DNA of 64,000 nucleotides from Haloferax marisrubri (GTDB taxonomy: Archaea; Halobacteriota; Halobacteria; Halobacteriales; Haloferacaceae): NCBI RefSeq assembly GCF_001469875.2, contig NZ_LOPW02000017.1, forward strand, positions 375,908-439,907, read 5' to 3'. How positions within the stretch are numbered: the stretch's first letter is position 1; each line of letters starts with the position of its first letter. Below the pieces are notes generated by a model. The model saw only the letters and a program-made list of their open reading frames with translations, had not been told where the DNA came from and ran no database searches. The position numbers and the translations under genes were made by a program. Shown piece by piece: positions 3,643-10,117 of the stretch.

Positions 3643-4593
3643 ATGAAAGCAGTACGCATTCACGAGTACGGTAGCCCGGATGTCCTCCGGTACGAAGACG
3701 TAGACGAGCCGGAACCGGCCGCCGACGAAGTGCGCGTGCGGGTACGCGCCGCCGGCGTGAACCCGGTCGACTGGATGACGCGGAAAGGCCTCGTCGAGCG
3801 AGACGAACTCCCGTGGACGGTCGGCTGGGACGCCGCCGGCGTCGTCGACGCCGTCGGTTCCGACGTGAGCGACCTGGAGGTCGGCGACGAGGTGTACGGT
3901 CTCGTCGAGTTCGAGTACGGTGGCGGTACGTACGCAGAGGCCGTCACAGCGCCGGAAGACGAGCTCGTGCGGAAACCGGCGTCGCTCAACTTCGAGGAAG
4001 CGGCCGGCGTCCCAATGGCAGCGCTGACCGCGTGGCAGGCGCTGGAGGCGGTCGACGTGGACGCTGGCGAACGCGTTCTCATCCACGCCGCGGCCGGCGG
4101 TGTGGGTCACTTCGCCGTCCAGTTCGCACGGGAGCGAGACCTCCACGTCATCGGCACCGCCTCGGGGTCGAACGAAGAGTACCTCCGAGAGCTCGGCGTC
4201 GACGAGTTCGTCAACTACCGCGAACAGCGCTTCGAAGAGGTGCTCGACCCGGTCGACGGAGTGATCGACGGCGTCGGTGGAGAGACCTTCGACCGGTCCC
4301 TCGAAATCCTGAAAGAAGGCGGTATCATCGACAAGCTTCCGAGTCCGCCGACCGACGAGCAGCAGGAACTGGCGGACGACCAGGGCGTCGAAGCAATCAT
4401 GACGAACGTCCGCTGGAACGGTGAGTGGTTCGAAGACATCACCAAGCTACTCGCAGACGGCACCGTCTCGGTGACGCTCGACACGGTGTTGCCGCTCTCC
4501 GAAGCGCGGGAGGCCCACCGGCTGAGCGAGGAGAAACACGCCCGCGGAAAGATTATCCTCAAACCCGGCGACGACGAGCCCGCGTCGAACTAA
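3643..4593 (+). CDS. NADP-dependent MDR oxidoreductase (quinone oxidoreductase-like)
   Basis: A 316-residue medium-chain dehydrogenase/reductase. The N-terminal GroES-like fold begins MKAVRIHEYGSPDVL, and the nucleotide site is HAAAGGVGHFAVQFAR (about 147-162). Zinc ligands of alcohol dehydrogenases are absent, placing it in the zinc-free QOR/zeta-crystallin group that reduces quinones or enones with NADPH. It likely acts with the upstream SDR because the two promoters share an operator-like block. The ATG is 46 bp after that block. Exact substrate unknown. Confidence 0.9.
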   Translation: MKAVRIHEYGSPDVLRYEDVDEPEPAADEVRVRVRAAGVNPVDWMTRKGLVERDELPWTVGWDAAGVVDAVGSDVSDLEVGDEVYGLVEFEYGGGTYAEAVTAPEDELVRKPASLNFEEAAGVPMAALTAWQALEAVDVDAGERVLIHAAAGGVGHFAVQFARERDLHVIGTASGSNEEYLRELGVDEFVNYREQRFEEVLDPVDGVIDGVGGETFDRSLEILKEGGIIDKLPSPPTDEQQELADDQGVEAIMTNVRWNGEWFEDITKLLADGTVSVTLDTVLPLSEAREAHRLSEEKHARGKIILKPGDDEPASN

Positions 4594-4800
4594 CTGACGC
4601 GTGTCCCCGTGACCGGCGTCGGCTCGGACGCCCGACCGTCGCCTCTCTCGGTCGTAGTGCGATGCGTTGCCGTCGGCGAGTACACGACGCTCCCCGCGTG
4701 GATGATGCGTGCGAGGAGCTTCGAAGAGCGTTACCGTTGCGTTCGATTCCCGATTCGAATTCGTCGCGTCCAGACGTAACTCGTCACGAAATGCCTCGCA
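4594..4800. other. Intergenic DNA left of the integrative element, no gene seen
   Basis: No convincing ORF, TATA box or RNA gene is seen here. The segment keeps the high GC of the host chromosome and would be the original DNA that lay downstream of the tRNA-Arg gene before insertion of the element. Confidence 0.4.
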
Positions 4801-4828
4801 GAATCACGGGCGCTGCAGCATGTTGAAC
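4801..4828 (-). repeat. Decayed direct copy of the tRNA-Arg 3' end
   Basis: The stretch beginning GAATCACGGGCGCTGCAG aligns with 4905-4931 (GAATCATGGGCGCTGCAG) through to TTGAAC, with about 25 of 28 positions matching and one single-base indel. It is therefore a second, degraded copy of the tRNA acceptor/T-arm end, 104 bp outside the current left attachment repeat. It may mark an older integration or a local duplication. Confidence 0.6.
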
Positions 4829-4854
4829 TTCACTCGCGGCGGAGTCGCTCGATA

Positions 4855-4931
4855 GTTCAAATCCTTCGCGAAGGGATGATTCTCCACTCACGTTGTTCGC
4901 GGAAGAATCATGGGCGCTGCAGGATTTGAAC
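4855..4931. repeat. Inverted repeat containing an inverted tRNA-Arg T-arm copy
   Basis: GTTCAAATCCT at 4855-4865 is the perfect reverse complement of 4921-4931, and ATGATTCT at 4876-4883 is the perfect reverse complement of 4904-4911. Between the first pair of arms lies the palindrome CCTTCGCGAAGG (4863-4874). The left arms read like the tRNA-Arg 3' half on the + strand with an altered acceptor middle, that is, a third tRNA-end copy in opposite orientation. Confidence 0.6.
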
Positions 4932-4942
4932 CCACGGCAACT
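4910..4942. repeat. Left attachment repeat (attL)
   Basis: This 33-bp sequence is identical to 10042-10074 and equals the T-arm and acceptor 3' end of the tRNA-Arg gene read on the complementary strand. Identity stops at base 4943, where the tRNA copy at 10075 differs. It is the displaced original tRNA end left by integration. Confidence 0.88.
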
Positions 4943-5020
4943 GCGTGAAATAAACATACAGACGGGAGATAACCGCCTCCAAAAGCGTACCGCTGGCGTC
5001 TGGTTTCCAAGGAAAGACCA

Positions 5021-6052
5021 ATGCCAGAACACCACACCTTGGAACCAATCGACCCGCCCACCGCGGTCGAGATGTATCTTCAGGAGCGAGAACCGGAAGT
5101 TTCAGAAGCGACCCTAAAGGCACACAGATACCGCCTGAACCACCTTATCCGGTGGTGTGAGGCGGTGGAAGAGATAGACAACCTAAACAACCTCACCGGG
5201 CGGAAACTCCACCACTACCGTCTCTGGAGGCGAGAAGACGGTGACTTGTCGAACGTGACCGTCAAGACCCAGATGGATACGGTCCGTGTGTTCATCCGAT
5301 TCTGCGAGCGAATTGACGCGGTTCGACCGAACCTGAGTGAGTCAGTTGTCTCGCCCTCGCTCTCCGATGGAGAAAACCAACGAGAAACGATACTCACGAG
5401 CGAGGCGGCTACAGAGATATTGAACCGCTTGGAACGCTTCGAGTACGCTTCCTTCAATCACACGCTACTGATCCTCCTATGGCGAACCGGAATGCGTCTC
5501 GGAGCCGCACGGGGGCTTGACATACAGGACTATGACGCACCTCGGATGCGGTTGAAACTTCAGCACCGACCAGAACACGATACTCCCCTGAAGAACGGGA
5601 GAGACGGAGAGAGACTGATTGCACTCCGCCCGGATACGTGTGAGGTCCTCTCGGATTGGGTAGAACACCGCCGAAGGGATGTAACGGACGAGTACGGGCG
5701 TGATCCGCTATTCACGACGGCCCAAGGGAGAGCGTCACGCACGACGATACGGGAAACCGTCTACCGCCTCACGAGACCGTGCGAATACACGGGAGAGTGT
5801 CCACACGGACGGGAGATTGAATCGTGTGAAGCGATGAACACCCGGCGCAAGGCAGCGAGTAAATGCCCTTCATCGGTCTCTCCGCACGACGTGAGGCGAG
5901 GGAGTATCACGCACTTCCTCTCTCGTGATGTTCCTGAGAAAGTTGTTAGCGACCGTATGAACGTTGGTCAGCAAGTTCTCTCAAAGCACTACGATCAGAG
6001 AACCGAGGAACAGAAGGTAGAACAACGGAGAGGCTACCTAAACAATATCTGA
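5021..6052 (+). CDS. Tyrosine recombinase/integrase
   Basis: A 343-residue XerC/D-type integrase. An N-terminal SAM-like core-binding domain (about 10-100) precedes the catalytic domain. Catalytic residues are visible: Arg in TGMRLG (about 159), His-x-x-Arg in SPHDVRRG (about 289-292) and the nucleophilic Tyr in LSKHYD (about 324). Four cysteines (about 254, 260, 269, 282) form a zinc-ribbon-like insert typical of haloarchaeal integrases. It starts 79 bp inside attL and points into the element. It should catalyse insertion into and excision from the tRNA-Arg 3' end. Since the gene is whole, the element may still be mobile. Confidence 0.93.
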   Translation: MPEHHTLEPIDPPTAVEMYLQEREPEVSEATLKAHRYRLNHLIRWCEAVEEIDNLNNLTGRKLHHYRLWRREDGDLSNVTVKTQMDTVRVFIRFCERIDAVRPNLSESVVSPSLSDGENQRETILTSEAATEILNRLERFEYASFNHTLLILLWRTGMRLGAARGLDIQDYDAPRMRLKLQHRPEHDTPLKNGRDGERLIALRPDTCEVLSDWVEHRRRDVTDEYGRDPLFTTAQGRASRTTIRETVYRLTRPCEYTGECPHGREIESCEAMNTRRKAASKCPSSVSPHDVRRGSITHFLSRDVPEKVVSDRMNVGQQVLSKHYDQRTEEQKVEQRRGYLNNI

Positions 6053-6099
6053 ATAGGACGGTACCCACAACAACCTCCAGCCTATTTTTGAACTAGGTC

Positions 6100-7812
6100 T
6101 TACACACCCCACAAATTCACGATATCTTGAGCAATCGTCCGGGTACGGTCTTCTATCGTCTCAAAGCCCCAGGAAGGATAATTGTCTGGAATTCTCTGAG
6201 TCATGGTAATATCTGACTGCTCGTACTCAGCGCACTTCTCAGCATACGAGCCATTCCTTACTCTCGAATTCTGCCGGTCTGCAAGTAGCGTAAGGTTTCC
6301 AAGTCTGGATTTGTAGTGATCAAAGCGTTCTTCATTATGATTGAAGACCGCTGCCCATGTGCTATATCTCTCCGATGAAAGAGAGCTAAGCGGTGCGATA
6401 TGCTCAAGATCGACTTGGTCAAGGTCAATTCTGGTCTCACGAGAGCCAGCGTTATAGTAATCTTCCTCCAGAGCACGGAGCAGGAAACGGGTGAAGCGGC
6501 TGTTCGGAAGCTCTCGGCCTTTCAATATCTCTTTTAACTGCTTGTCGCTGACGGTACGTTCTTTTATTAGCTCTTCTGCTTCATCCTCCCACTTGGACTG
6601 CTTACTATCGATGAGCTTAGTTACAAGTTGGTACATGCTGTCTCGATGGTAAGCTGGCGCAGCATCCTGCAAGTTCAGACGGACATTCAGCTTGTTCGCT
6701 AATCGCAGTAAATTCTCCATCTCGTCCGCTGTATCAATGTTCTCGACAAGATACAAGAGGACAACCGGAGCATGAGAATTCTTGCTCTGGAAGAACCTCA
6801 TTTGGTCGTTAATCAAACTCCTCTTGTTACGCTGATATTTACGAACGGTTCCTTCGTGGATATCTATGTACCTGTCTGTGTAGTCCTCAAGCTTTGAGAT
6901 GAATCGACGGATCTCTGTAGCCCCCTCATGCTTGTCCAAAGCAGCCGCGAATGTCCGGTAGAAGTCTTTGGTGGTCACTCTACTCCGAACGTCGTATTCT
7001 TCGTCGACAATCAAGTAGTGCGTAAACGCTCTTCGGGGGGCTGCGCTGCTCACCTGGTCGTTTTCTTCTAACCGGGTGGAAATGTTTTCCCAACGGCGTC
7101 TAACGGACTCCTCGTTCAGTCCAACCAGACTCGCCTCTTCTAGGAGTTTTGTTTTAGCGAGATTAAGCGGAGATAACGCAAGCCCACGGTCGTTTTGTGT
7201 TTGAAACACTTGGTACGCCGCAGTCATACTACCACACGAAGTCCGAACTAAATCAACATTGTTGACGACGTTCTTGAGAAGGTCTATTTGTTCATCGGTA
7301 TCCAGATCAGATAGCTTCTGCTTGAAGAAATCGTACGCTTCACGGATTCGGTGATCCTCTTCAATCAGCTCTGGGCTTCCATCGTAGAGATGTTGGTATG
7401 CTTCTTCGTCTCCATCAAGGAGGTGGAGAGTTCGTATTTCGTCTCCGTTCTTATCATGTGTCGTGAGTATGCTCTCTACGTTTTTGTTATCGTGGAGATC
7501 TGCAGCATCTCGAATTGCGCAGACTAATATAGAAAATGTAGTCAGTCGCTGTTGGCCATCTACGATCTTGTATGTGTCTACGTCTTCGTCGGACTTCCTC
7601 TCATCTTCTACAAGAATAACCTGTCCGACAAAGTGAGAAGGCTTTGCCTCAGTACCTATCGTTTCAATATCATCCCATAATTCGGAACGTTGCTTCTGTT
7701 TCCACTTATACTCCCTTTGGAAGATCGGAACACGGAAGATACGGGTTCGTTCACCCAGTAGATCAATAAGCCTCAATTCCTCGGCTTCAAGATCCATATC
7801 GCTATTTCCCAT
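6100..7812 (-). CDS. DUF262-DUF1524 fusion, GmrSD-type restriction nuclease
   Basis: A 570-residue protein. The N-terminal DUF262 (GmrS-like, ParB/Srx fold) carries VPIFQREYKW and the nucleotide-binding motif IVDGQQRLTT (about 83-92). The C-terminal DUF1524 (GmrD-like HNH) carries DLEHIAP (about 468-474), then RLGNLTLL and the following Asn. Single-chain GmrSD proteins are type IV restriction enzymes that cut modified, especially glucosylated, phage DNA, and DUF262 proteins also appear in other defence systems. The ATG at 7812 lies about 27 nt from a TATA box, so it is leaderless; a TTG at 7824 would be upstream of the transcript. The gene is much more AT-rich than the host, a sign of transfer. 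Confidence 0.88.
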   Translation of the reverse strand: MGNSDMDLEAEELRLIDLLGERTRIFRVPIFQREYKWKQKQRSELWDDIETIGTEAKPSHFVGQVILVEDERKSDEDVDTYKIVDGQQRLTTFSILVCAIRDAADLHDNKNVESILTTHDKNGDEIRTLHLLDGDEEAYQHLYDGSPELIEEDHRIREAYDFFKQKLSDLDTDEQIDLLKNVVNNVDLVRTSCGSMTAAYQVFQTQNDRGLALSPLNLAKTKLLEEASLVGLNEESVRRRWENISTRLEENDQVSSAAPRRAFTHYLIVDEEYDVRSRVTTKDFYRTFAAALDKHEGATEIRRFISKLEDYTDRYIDIHEGTVRKYQRNKRSLINDQMRFFQSKNSHAPVVLLYLVENIDTADEMENLLRLANKLNVRLNLQDAAPAYHRDSMYQLVTKLIDSKQSKWEDEAEELIKERTVSDKQLKEILKGRELPNSRFTRFLLRALEEDYYNAGSRETRIDLDQVDLEHIAPLSSLSSERYSTWAAVFNHNEERFDHYKSRLGNLTLLADRQNSRVRNGSYAEKCAEYEQSDITMTQRIPDNYPSWGFETIEDRTRTIAQDIVNLWGV

Positions 7813-7835
7813 ACCGTTTGACAATGGAATAGGGT

Positions 7836-7943
7836 CTTAAAAACTTGTAGATGGGTTGAAATCAGGTATGGACTTCCCGTCTGGATCGGATGCAGTTACG
7901 GTCCTTCTCGCACAGTCTGGGCGTAAAGGCTAGGCTTTTTAAG
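7836..7943. promoter_or_regulatory. Mirror-image divergent TATA boxes
   Basis: CTTAAAAA at 7836-7843 (minus-strand TTTTTAAG) and TTTTTAAG at 7936-7943 are identical 8-mers exactly 100 bp apart. One drives the nuclease, the other the serine recombinase, both with the ATG about where transcription should begin. The symmetry suggests matched basal strength or shared control. Confidence 0.6.
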
Positions 7944-7958
7944 CACTAAGAGGTGGGC

Positions 7959-8612
7959 ATGAAGGTCGGTTGCTATTGCCGTGTTTCTACTCCGGATCAA
8001 AACCTTGACCGCCAAATTGGGTCCACTACGTCCTACGCTCAGCATGAACTTGGTGTGAACCTCTCAGAGCTTCGTGTGTATCGAGACAAAGCAACGGGTA
8101 CGAACACTTCTCGAGACGGCTACAAGCGCCTCATGGACGACGTGGAGGCGGGAGATGTGGAAACGGTAGTTGTTCATGAGATTAGCCGTCTCGCTCGGTC
8201 GCTCCAAGATTTAGACCGCACCGTCTCTCGCGTCATGGGGTTGGGTGCGACGATACACTTCGTCAGAGACGGTCTCTCGTTTGGGGACGGAAACGAACAA
8301 CCGATGTACCGACTGCAGATGCAGATGCTCGGAGCGTTCGCAGAGTGGGAAGCACGAGTAAAGCAGATGAACACGAGAGAGGGCATAGCGGCACGTCAGG
8401 CAAACCCTGAGTACCACCACGGCCCCGCCCCGCTCGGATTCGAGAAAGACGATGGGATGCTCATAGAGGGCCCGCAATACGACCGTGTGGTTGCTGTTCT
8501 CGACATGGTTCAGAAAGGCGAACTCTCGAAACGGAGTGCAGCAAAGGAACTGGACACGTCTCGTCGGACTATCTCGCGAGCGTTAGATCGGGATAGTTTG
8601 TATGGACTCTAA
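7959..8612 (+). CDS. Serine recombinase (resolvase/invertase family)
   Basis: A protein of 217 residues from the ATG at 7959; a GTG at 7953 is possible but is less likely given the TATA position. The resolvase catalytic domain begins CYCRVSTPDQN with the nucleophile at about Ser10, followed by RDKATGTNTSRDGYKRLM and VVVHEISRLARSLQDL. The C-terminal segment (ELSKRSAAKELDTSRRTISRAL) is a helix-turn-helix. Size fits small resolvase/invertases rather than large serine integrases. It may resolve dimers of the excised circle or invert a segment; no clear invertible segment was found. It ends overlapping a convergent small gene by 4 bp. Confidence 0.9.
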   Translation: MKVGCYCRVSTPDQNLDRQIGSTTSYAQHELGVNLSELRVYRDKATGTNTSRDGYKRLMDDVEAGDVETVVVHEISRLARSLQDLDRTVSRVMGLGATIHFVRDGLSFGDGNEQPMYRLQMQMLGAFAEWEARVKQMNTREGIAARQANPEYHHGPAPLGFEKDDGMLIEGPQYDRVVAVLDMVQKGELSKRSAAKELDTSRRTISRALDRDSLYGL

Positions 8613-8794
8613 TCAAGAACGGTCCACTCGCCCGTCGCTACCAACCTTTTCAAGTCTTTAACCTGTACGGTGAATGCATCGTTACCGACCTCGCCCCGAA
8701 ACCAGAACCGACGTTCTTGTTCACCCGGATACGTACCGCTCGCGAAGGCGATTACGATTTCACCGTTTTCGGTTCGATATCTGCTCTCTTTCAT
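8609..8794 (-). CDS. Small conserved-looking protein of the element
   Basis: A 61-residue ORF, beginning MKESRYRTENGEIVIAF and ending VKDLKRLVATGEWTVLD. It is the only sizeable frame in its interval, ends with a 4-bp convergent overlap with the recombinase, and has alternating hydrophobic strands followed by a helix, suggesting a small beta-alpha fold. No motif is recognised and no function is proposed. It could be a small DNA- or protein-binding accessory of the element. Confidence 0.55.
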   Translation of the reverse strand: MKESRYRTENGEIVIAFASGTYPGEQERRFWFRGEVGNDAFTVQVKDLKRLVATGEWTVLD

Positions 8795-9216
8795 TCGAAT
8801 TGGATTCCATTGACCAGACTATTCTACCGTACTTCTTGCGGTTGTCCTCGGTCGTACGGTAGACCGGAAACGCTTACCGGTTGGTCGGTCCTCTCGTCCC
8901 GCGTTATACTCGGGATTCCTTGCGGGTGTCCTCAGTCACTCTCTCCGAGACTACTCAGTCTCTTCGAGAGCGAGACCCACGCCTAGGCTAGCTTGCTTGA
9001 GCCCCCTATCCCTTTAGACAGCAACGGTGGCTGGGGTTCAGGGTGACAGGGTTATGGTCACGGGAGACTACTTCCCGGTACTTTCCATATCCCGCTCTTC
9101 ACCGTCGGTCGTTTCTCAGAGTAAATAAGGGTTTCATCGCTACAGTCGCTAACGGTCGAGTACGTACCGTATACAACCAAACTTGTATATAGAACAATCA
9201 CATTTGTTTATCTACT
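8795..9216. other. Non-coding control region of the element, with dyads and direct repeats
   Basis: This 422-bp gap holds no ORF worth calling. It has a perfect 9-bp inverted repeat CTACCGTAC/GTACGGTAG (8824-8832 and 8854-8862). The 21-nt loop (starting TTCTTGCGGTTGTCC) is repeated nearly exactly at 8917-8938. A dyad GAGACT-ACTC-AGTCTC lies at 8947-8962. A TATA box (GTATATA, 9185-9191) sits about 28 nt before the ATG at 9217. These could be recombinase res sites, origin iterons or operators. Confidence 0.5.
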
Positions 9217-9414
9217 ATGTCTCAATGCTTTGGCTCCATATCGGTTGGAACGAAGACGGATGATGCTATGTGTGAGTTCCTGAACCGTGAGTCGGAACAA
9301 CTTGGGGTATCTAATTCTGAACTCATTAGACGAATTCTCGAACACTACCGAGATGGGCGGTCTGGGGACCTTCGGTGTCCACATTGTGAGGGACTGCTTG
9401 AGGTGGTGGTATAG
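9217..9414 (+). CDS. Small RHH-like protein with C-terminal CxxC
   Basis: A 65-residue protein. Residues 8-48 (VGTKTDDAMCEFLNRESEQLGVSNSELIRRILEHYRD) have the beta-helix-helix pattern of ribbon-helix-helix repressors, and the tail has a CPHC knuckle that could bind zinc. The leaderless ATG lies about 28 nt after GTATATA. It is the first gene of a three-gene set at the right end of the element. A repressor of the integrase or of its own operon is plausible. Confidence 0.72.
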   Translation: MSQCFGSISVGTKTDDAMCEFLNRESEQLGVSNSELIRRILEHYRDGRSGDLRCPHCEGLLEVVV

Positions 9415-9416
9415 CC

Positions 9417-9566
9417 ATGCCCTTTGAGAAGGCACCAAGTGAGCTGGCGTCACCTCATTCTGGACTCACGTCACCGGGGTTCAGACTCGGGGTTATCTCG
9501 ATAGCTATCCTTCTGATCTCGGTCTACGTTCAGACGATGCCGAGAAACGAGGTGGGCGTTGTATGA
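9417..9566 (+). CDS. Tiny single-pass membrane protein
   Basis: A 49-residue ORF starting 2 bp after the RHH gene: MPFEKAPSELASPHSGL, then a hydrophobic stretch FRLGVISIAILLISVYV (about 22-38), ending NEVGVV. The stop overlaps the next start in the ATGA arrangement, so the three genes are translated as one unit. One transmembrane helix with an N-terminal polar region. Function unknown. Confidence 0.6.
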   Translation: MPFEKAPSELASPHSGLTSPGFRLGVISIAILLISVYVQTMPRNEVGVV

Positions 9567-9766
9567 TCCCACTCCAAGAGAACGTGGCTGAACGAGCCGT
9601 TCGGACCCACAGCTTTGAGCATCACATTCGGTGGGACTATGTTCTGATTGTACTCGCAGTTGTGTTAGTCACGTATTCACTCAGACACTCTCAACTCTCC
9701 CGAGACGGCGGGAGTGGACGGCGGGAGCCGGACCCAGAGGGAGAGGCGGGACCCACGGAGCGATAG
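9563..9766 (+). CDS. Small membrane protein
   Basis: A 67-residue ORF overlapping the previous gene by 4 bp (ATGA). It has a polar N terminus, a transmembrane helix (DYVLIVLAVVLVTYSL, about 25-40) and a charged Gly/Glu/Arg-rich tail. The coupling and paired single-pass design suggest that it works with the 49-residue protein, possibly as a two-subunit membrane factor of the element. No family is recognised. Confidence 0.6.
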   Translation: MIPLQENVAERAVRTHSFEHHIRWDYVLIVLAVVLVTYSLRHSQLSRDGGSGRREPDPEGEAGPTER

Positions 9767-9963
9767 CGGAGTGGGGGCAAACACCCTCGGACGGAAGCCC
9801 GCCTTATCGAGTGGGCGTGACGCAGAGATAATCCGATAATACACAGATGTAGCGAACCATCTGTGGTTTTGGTTCTGTTTATCTTGAGATAACTACTTGT
9901 AGAGTACCGTGTTCGGATCTAGCGGAAGCCACGACGACGGCGACTCGCGTCACGTAACGTGTT

Positions 9964-10001
9964 CAAATCAGTCTGGACAGGGGGGTTTGCTTCGGACCAA
10001 T
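9964..10001 (+). pseudogene. tRNA-Arg fragment (D arm and anticodon arm), inverted relative to the intact gene
   Basis: CAGTCTGGACAG (9969-9980) and CTTCGGACCAA (9990-10000) match the D loop and anticodon loop of the intact tRNA-Arg with the same spacing (28 of 32 positions identical), but on the opposite strand. The anticodon stem is no longer paired and the acceptor stem is missing, so it cannot be a working tRNA. It is a decayed tRNA piece just inside the right end of the element. Confidence 0.7.
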
Positions 10002-10041
10002 TGCTCTCCTGTACGGTCAATTCCAATCGAGAAGTATCGGG

Positions 10042-10074
10042 ATGGGCGCTGCAGGATTTGAACCCACGGCAACT
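10042..10074. repeat. Right attachment repeat (attR) within tRNA-Arg
   Basis: This 33-bp sequence is identical to 4910-4942. It covers the T arm, acceptor 3' strand and discriminator base of the intact tRNA gene, so integration regenerated a complete tRNA at this end. Confidence 0.88.
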
Positions 10075-10117
10075 TGGTCCGAAGCCAAGCACTCTGTCCA
10101 GACTGAGCTAAGCGCCC
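10043..10117 (-). tRNA. tRNA-Arg (anticodon TCG)
   Basis: Read on the minus strand, the acceptor GGGCGCT pairs with AGCGCCC. A D arm with AGTCTGGACA loop follows. The anticodon arm is CTTGG-CTTCGGA-CCAAG (anticodon TCG, Arg, reading CGA), and the T arm carries TTCAAAT. The discriminator is A and no CCA is encoded. The 3' end is the insertion target of the element to its left. Confidence 0.95.

What the first reader, a model, noticed from the sequence alone, without database searches (positions are those of the whole stretch)
4910..10074. Minimal tRNA-Arg integrative element whose main cargo is a GmrSD-type defence nuclease
Seen: perfect 33-bp direct repeats, intact tRNA-Arg at one end, tyrosine integrase at the other, a clear drop in GC, one large defence-like gene and only tiny accessory genes. 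Known: single-chain DUF262-DUF1524 proteins are type IV restriction enzymes. Inferred: this is a very small mobile defence island carrying its own excision system, with no replication or packaging genes, so it may be a satellite moved by a helper virus or plasmid.
Basis: partly seen in the sequence, partly recalled or inferred. Interest (0 to 1): 0.68.

Follow-up and report, generated by a model that had tools for sequence, protein, structure and literature searches.

The report
Small mobile archaeal island, tRNA-mimicking end
A 5-kb piece of DNA in a salt-loving archaeon has jumped into an arginine-tRNA gene carrying a probable anti-virus nuclease; such islands are known, but one end of this one holds a backward copy of part of the very tRNA gene it targets, and in its closest relatives that copy changes when the target changes.

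Summary
A 5.13-kb, low-GC element (GC 0.51 against 0.65-0.69 around it) lies between perfect 33-bp repeats of the 3' end of an intact tRNA-Arg(TCG). It encodes a tyrosine integrase, a single-chain GmrSD/HEC-06-type nuclease with intact motifs, a serine recombinase and four small ORFs. Eight of 14 same-genus genomes have the empty site; the other six hold no copy of it. The integrase is SNJ2-type (47% to SNJ2); the closest two relatives (78%, 74%) sit in tRNA-Arg(CCG) with different cargo. So the mobile-island reading holds and is largely ordinary. The satellite idea is not shown, though the 3.1-kb sister element carries, besides its integrase, a recognisable spindle-virus major capsid protein gene. 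It recurs in the two sisters and in a fourth solo end, each best matching its own target tRNA, so an inferred target switch (CCG to TCG) changed core and copy together. A wider set shares an inverted T-loop exactly 80 nt from the tRNA. Function of these arms is inferred only.

The parts
4910..4942 (+). attL: 33-bp copy of the tRNA-Arg 3' end left at the integrase end
   Evidence: perfect direct repeat; contiguous with left flank in empty relatives
10042..10074 (+). attR: 33 bp, 3' part of the restored tRNA-Arg gene plus one base
10043..10117 (-). intact tRNA-Arg(TCG), the integration target
   Evidence: ARAGORN; Rfam tRNA 62 bits
5021..6052 (+). SNJ2-type tyrosine integrase (343 aa), reads inward from attL; catalytic-type motifs TGMRLG, HDVRRG, KHYD present
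   Evidence: Pfam; 47% to SNJ2 integrase over 98%; motifs; tree
6100..7812 (-). single-chain GmrSD/HEC-06-type nuclease, ATG at 7812 (frame open to TTG at 7824); motifs DGQQR, NDRG, LEHIAP, LGNLTLL present
   Evidence: Pfam GmrSD_N and GmrSD_C; PADLOC HEC-06 E 5e-70; PDB 9jfl_B over full length; motifs
7953..8612 (+). serine recombinase (resolvase/invertase type), diverges from the GmrSD gene
   Evidence: Pfam Resolvase E 1.5e-32; 72% homologue in another genus
8609..8794 (-). 61-aa protein of unknown family, homologue (69%) only in the G040 element
9217..9414 (+). 65-aa ribbon-helix-helix protein with C-terminal CxxC pair, possible element regulator
   Evidence: RHH_1 E 5e-4, just below cut-off; 54% homologue in the G040 element
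9417..9766 (+). two short ORFs (49 and 67 aa), each with one hydrophobic stretch; the second resembles an ORF at the same place in the G040 element
   Evidence: ORF list; alignment 33%; no family match
9880..10041 (+). conserved, apparently non-coding right arm next to attR (proposed attP arm)
   Evidence: 76-80% DNA identity in G013, G040 and a solo end in G040, while neighbouring DNA is diverged
9959..9969 (+). inverted T-loop-like motif GTGTTCAAATC; TCAAATC begins exactly 80 nt from the tRNA 3' end
   Evidence: same offset in 7 of 27 elements
9968..10004 (+). inverted copy of target tRNA-Arg nt 12-49 (D arm to variable loop)
   Evidence: z = 15.9 against shuffles; best match is its own target among 31 tRNA types
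4800..4909 (+). older scar on the host side: degraded tRNA 3' end plus hairpin-rich spacer
   Evidence: repeat D2; similar unit present in empty relatives

Best explanation
A 5.13-kb integrative element of the SNJ2-type integrase group. Shown by sequence: it sits in the 3' end of tRNA-Arg(TCG), the tRNA gene is restored, relatives have the empty site, and its integrase relatives sit in other tRNA genes with other cargo. Inferred from integrase biology: the integrase recombines a circular form (attP) with attB in the T-arm/acceptor part of the tRNA gene, and can excise it. The right arm with its inverted T-loop and inverted tRNA 5' half is most likely part of attP, giving the integrase or a partner a target-like binding site beside the core. 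That would explain why the copy follows the target when the target changes (function inferred). The main cargo is a GmrSD-type nuclease, most likely cutting incoming, probably modified, viral DNA (function inferred from family). The resolvase may keep the excised form monomeric or be part of the cargo (inferred). The transfer route is unknown; cell fusion or DNA uptake would suffice without a helper.
For: 33-bp att pair, intact tRNA, integrase; empty site with contiguous flanks in 8 of 14 genus-mates; GC drop; SNJ2-type relatives in phages, pHK2 and 156 of 170 family genomes; same layout with tRNA at the far end in 27 elements. Close elements in tRNA-Arg(CCG) of another species and another genus. 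Nuclease identity and motifs. Right arm conserved; inverted tRNA copies z 15.9-18.6, each scoring best against its own target among 31 tRNA types (49 vs 25, 63 vs 37, 51 vs 46, 54 vs 29); the element's integrase is nested among CCG-targeting sisters.
Against: No excised circle or empty/occupied pair within one strain could be tested. Only four inverted 5'-half copies exist, from one small clade, so they are not four independent events; one (L053) barely prefers its own target (51 vs 46). SNJ2 accessory proteins are absent. The 52-nt repeat around attR could be homogenised by template switching without any function.
Confidence: 0.82

Rival explanations
1. The inverted tRNA half has no recombination role. 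It is a quasi-palindrome beside the intact tRNA, made by a chance template switch and kept similar to the target by later template switching between the two arms.
For: The two arms lie only about 70 bp apart and a read-through strand folds them together strongly (z = -4.8); such arms are known substrates for template switching (general knowledge). This explains target matching without selection.
Against: The copy sits at the same place in a conserved 130-bp arm in three elements and a solo end; an inverted T-loop at the same -80 offset recurs in a second integrase clade whose arms otherwise differ; two further elements carry a displaced copy of their target's anticodon arm at the other end (L054, L056).
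Confidence: 0.35
2. RNA-level role: read-through of the tRNA into the element pairs the tRNA 5' half with the downstream antisense copy, lowering or tuning tRNA-Arg output or ending transcription.
For: Strong predicted fold of tRNA plus arm on the minus strand, -93.4 kcal/mol, no shuffle as low.
Against: A long inverted repeat folds well by construction; no benefit to the element is evident; more distant relatives keep only the T-loop motif, too short to pair with the tRNA 5' half.
Confidence: 0.1
3. A virus satellite: the element is packaged by a spindle-shaped halovirus or mobilised by a pHK2-like replicon, and its nuclease guards against competing viruses.
For: Small size and no replication genes; the sister element in G013 carries a His1-type major capsid protein gene besides integrase, the only such match over the cut-off in 170 family genomes and 54% to the MCP of BLv25; a pHK2-like Rep in the same genome.
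Against: The window element has no capsid or packaging match; the capsid gene in the sister could be a provirus remnant; the pHK2-like Rep frame has an internal stop; no helper is shown.
Confidence: 0.12
4. A decayed plasmid or provirus that is no longer mobile and persists as a resident defence island.
For: No replication gene; a solo right end in G040 shows such elements can decay.
Against: Att repeats are perfect, and the integrase and other frames are intact.
Confidence: 0.25

Closest known systems
SNJ2-type integrases and temperate betapleolipoviruses (SNJ2, HHPV4), plasmid pHK2
   Same: Integrase 47% (SNJ2), 46% (HHPV4), 44% (pHK2) over 93-98%; integration at a tRNA 3' end
   Different: No virus structural, Rep or accessory Orf2/Orf3 genes; the integrase start lies next to att and reads inward, whereas in SNJ2 att lies downstream of the integrase gene (PMC13107129); 33-bp att instead of 14 bp
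GmrSD family of type IV restriction enzymes / PADLOC HEC-06 / BrxU
   Same: Single chain with DUF262 and DUF1524 domains and their motifs
   Different: About 30% identity to other haloarchaeal members; substrate untested
Small tRNA-integrated elements of the same family (G013 3.1 kb, G040 4.2 kb)
   Same: Integrase 78% and 74%, conserved right arm, inverted tRNA half; G040 also has the 61-aa, RHH and membrane ORFs
   Different: Target tRNA-Arg(CCG); no GmrSD or resolvase; G013 carries a spindle-virus capsid gene

Membership tests
SNJ2-type tyrosine integrase family | At least 30% identity over 60% of the protein to the family (criterion in PMC8371274) | tested here: met
   47.4% over 98% to SNJ2 integrase
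SNJ2-type tyrosine integrase family | Phage_int_SAM plus Phage_integrase domains and catalytic-type motifs | tested here: met
   TGMRLG, HDVRRG, KHYD
SNJ2 recombination system (integrase with Orf2 and Orf3) | Accessory proteins Orf2 and Orf3 encoded with the integrase | tested here: not met
   no tblastn match better than E 1 in the element or its two sisters
Integrative element in a tRNA gene | Direct repeat of tRNA 3' end, integrase at one end, intact tRNA at the other | tested here: met
Integrative element in a tRNA gene | Empty site in relatives | tested here: met
   8 of 14 genus-mates with contiguous flanks
Integrative element in a tRNA gene | Excised circular form | not testable with these tools
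   needs reads or PCR
GmrSD / HEC-06 restriction enzymes | GmrSD_N and GmrSD_C domains in one chain with DGQQR and His-Asn nuclease motifs | tested here: met
GmrSD / HEC-06 restriction enzymes | Cleavage of modified DNA or restriction of viruses | not testable with these tools
   HEC-06 members are reported to have shown antiviral activity (PMC12988326); this protein is untested
Virus satellite | Capsid, packaging or helper-interference genes, or dependence on a helper | tested here: inconclusive
   none found in the window element; capsid gene in the sister element
Pleolipovirus / pHK2 provirus | Rep, spike, NTPase genes | tested here: not met
   no such match inside the element

The most novel reading that the evidence does not exclude
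SNJ2-type elements carry, beside the att core, a target-matched copy of tRNA sequence (inverted T-loop at a fixed 80 nt, plus the 5' half in this clade) that acts as an integrase-directing arm. Switching target tRNA then requires switching both core and arm. Within this clade cargo is swappable, from a restriction enzyme to a spindle-virus capsid gene.
Probability: 0.35. Interest if true: 0.68.

Novelty: new variant of a known kind. Interest (0 to 1): 0.47.

Why it matters
Small integrase elements are very common in haloarchaea, and how they choose and change target tRNAs is largely unexplained. A target-matched tRNA copy in the arm gives a concrete, testable clue to target choice. The element also shows that a restriction gene can travel on an island of about 5 kb, and its sister, with integrase and a viral capsid gene as its only recognisable genes, raises the question whether such islands are satellites of spindle-shaped viruses.

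Tried and rejected
Arm as coding sequence: rejected, L053 has an in-frame stop in it (reading). Arm as a known RNA: no Rfam match except the tRNA itself; plus-strand fold no better than shuffles. Archaeal C/D guide RNA: considered by eye and dropped, since no C box was seen and the D-like CUGA is missing in L055. Short database matches to GGAAGCCACGACGACGGCG: 16 loci fetched, judged low-complexity chance. SNJ2 Orf2/Orf3 homologues: none. RHH and 67-aa proteins in phages, RHH in plasmids: no meaningful match. Viral contigs with this integrase: none. GmrSD next to integrases or tRNAs elsewhere: seen in a few loci but no att pair found there, so not counted as the same system.

Full report
Observation. 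Perfect 33-bp repeats lie at 4910-4942 and 10042-10074, the second being the 3' end of an intact tRNA-Arg(TCG) gene on the minus strand. GC is 0.514 inside and 0.65-0.69 outside, by far the lowest 5-kb stretch in the window.

Mobility. Joining the two flanks of the window gives a sequence that is contiguous in G014, G013, G011, G007, G006, G008, G005 and G003, that is in 8 of 14 genus-mates; three of these also show synteny on the left. The other six have other sequence abutting the tRNA; G010 and G002 show right arms of the same general type and G001 carries another integrase (44%) nearby. The site is therefore a hotspot and the element is not ancestral. Its DNA arm and small proteins are rare: the 61-aa protein was found in no other genome of a 392-genome order sample (G040, where it was found by another route, was not in that list of matches), and the RHH protein has one good relative, in G040.

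Relatives. The integrase is 78% identical to one in a 3.1-kb element of the same genus (G013, L053) and 74% to one in a 4.2-kb element of another genus (G040, L055), both in tRNA-Arg(CCG). G040 shares the 61-aa protein (69%), the RHH protein (54%) and a membrane ORF. G013 instead carries a 72-117 aa protein with a His1 virus capsid match (PF25665, E 1e-22); it is the only such match over the cut-off in 170 family genomes, and its best phage relative is the annotated MCP of Halorubrum spindle-shaped virus BLv25 (54% over 48 aa). A wider set of relatives shares the layout of integrase beside att reading inward with the tRNA at the far end: 27 elements with an att pair, in Arg, Lys, Phe, Ile, Pro and Val tRNA genes. 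By sequence the integrase meets the SNJ2 family criterion of PMC8371274. The accessory genes Orf2 and Orf3 of SNJ2 have no homologue here, and the gene order differs from SNJ2.

The right arm. Next to attR lies a conserved arm of about 130 bp that appears non-coding (L053 has an in-frame stop). It contains an inverted copy of the 5' part of the target tRNA, nt 12-49 in the window, with z-scores of 15.9, 16.3 and 18.6 in the three elements. A fourth copy stands in a solo right end without integrase at tRNA-Arg(TCG) of G040 (L176). Against 31 tRNA types held, each copy scores best with its own target: 49 vs 25 and 63 vs 37 for the two at TCG, 51 vs 46 and 54 vs 29 for the two at CCG. In the integrase tree the window element is nested among the CCG-targeting sisters (99/95 and 99/99), so the simplest reading is a switch from CCG to TCG in which core and arm copy changed together. 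This is inferred from three integrases and is one event at most.

Wider pattern. A T-loop-like motif TCRAATC in the inverted sense begins exactly 80 nt from the tRNA 3' end in 7 of 27 elements; it occurs 11 times in all in the 200 bp searched, and shuffles never give more than one per position. The seven fall in the Arg clade and in the Phe/Pro clade; near matches at the same place occur in several others. In L057 the motif reads TTCGAATC, like the T-loop of its own target, where most others read TTCAAATC. Two further elements (L054 at Arg, L056 at Lys) have a displaced same-strand copy of their target's anticodon arm about 57 bp inside the other end, z 11.0 and 13.6. Shared ancestry inflates these counts, so they are leads and not independent events.

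Function. The most likely reading is that these arms belong to attP and offer the recombinase, or a partner, target-like binding sites. Template switching between the arms of the quasi-palindrome could explain target matching without function, and I give it a real chance. An RNA role through read-through pairing seems less likely. The GmrSD-type protein matches HEC-06, for which antiviral activity has been reported (PMC12988326), and has its motifs intact; antiviral function here is inferred from family. The satellite idea remains possible but unproven: the window element has no capsid gene. The confidence of 0.82 given for the best explanation refers to the island itself (integrative element with its own integrase and a GmrSD-type cargo); the recombination role of the arm alone I would put near 0.4.

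Verdict. A new member of a known kind as an island, a new variant in its ends. The defence-island story by itself is of modest interest; the target-matched tRNA copy and the capsid-bearing sister are what make it worth following.

Noticed in passing
L053 4555-4908 (G013 element, 4223-7394): A 3.1-kb sister element has integrase plus a spindle-virus major capsid protein gene as its only recognisable genes, with about 1.3 kb of low-GC sequence between them.
   Followed up: partly
window 4800-4909; L004, L011, L012, L016, L017, L176: Just outside attL lies a unit of about 104 bp with a degraded tRNA 3' end, hairpins and an inverted T-loop-like stretch; similar units occur at this site in empty relatives and, in L055 and L074, at tRNA-Arg(CCG).
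   Followed up: partly
L176 10252-10433 (G040 chromosome): Solo right end of a related element with a nearly perfect inverted tRNA-Arg(TCG) 5' half and no integrase left nearby.
   Followed up: yes
L054 5510-5530; L056 (integrase-forward orientation) 5962-5986: Displaced same-strand copies of the target tRNA's anticodon arm about 57 bp inside the left end, behind two hairpins.
   Followed up: partly
G000 C17:234941-236797 (L230): pHK2-like Rep gene (78%) with an in-frame stop in the same genome, about 144 kb from the element.
   Followed up: no
L057 11910-12401: A second, truncated integrase (68%) directly before the target tRNA-Arg(CCT), suggesting tandem or successive integration.
   Followed up: no
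L219, L220, L215, L218: Other haloarchaeal GmrSD-type genes lie near SNJ2-type integrases, a serine recombinase or tRNA genes, in L219 in the same divergent GmrSD-recombinase order.
   Followed up: partly
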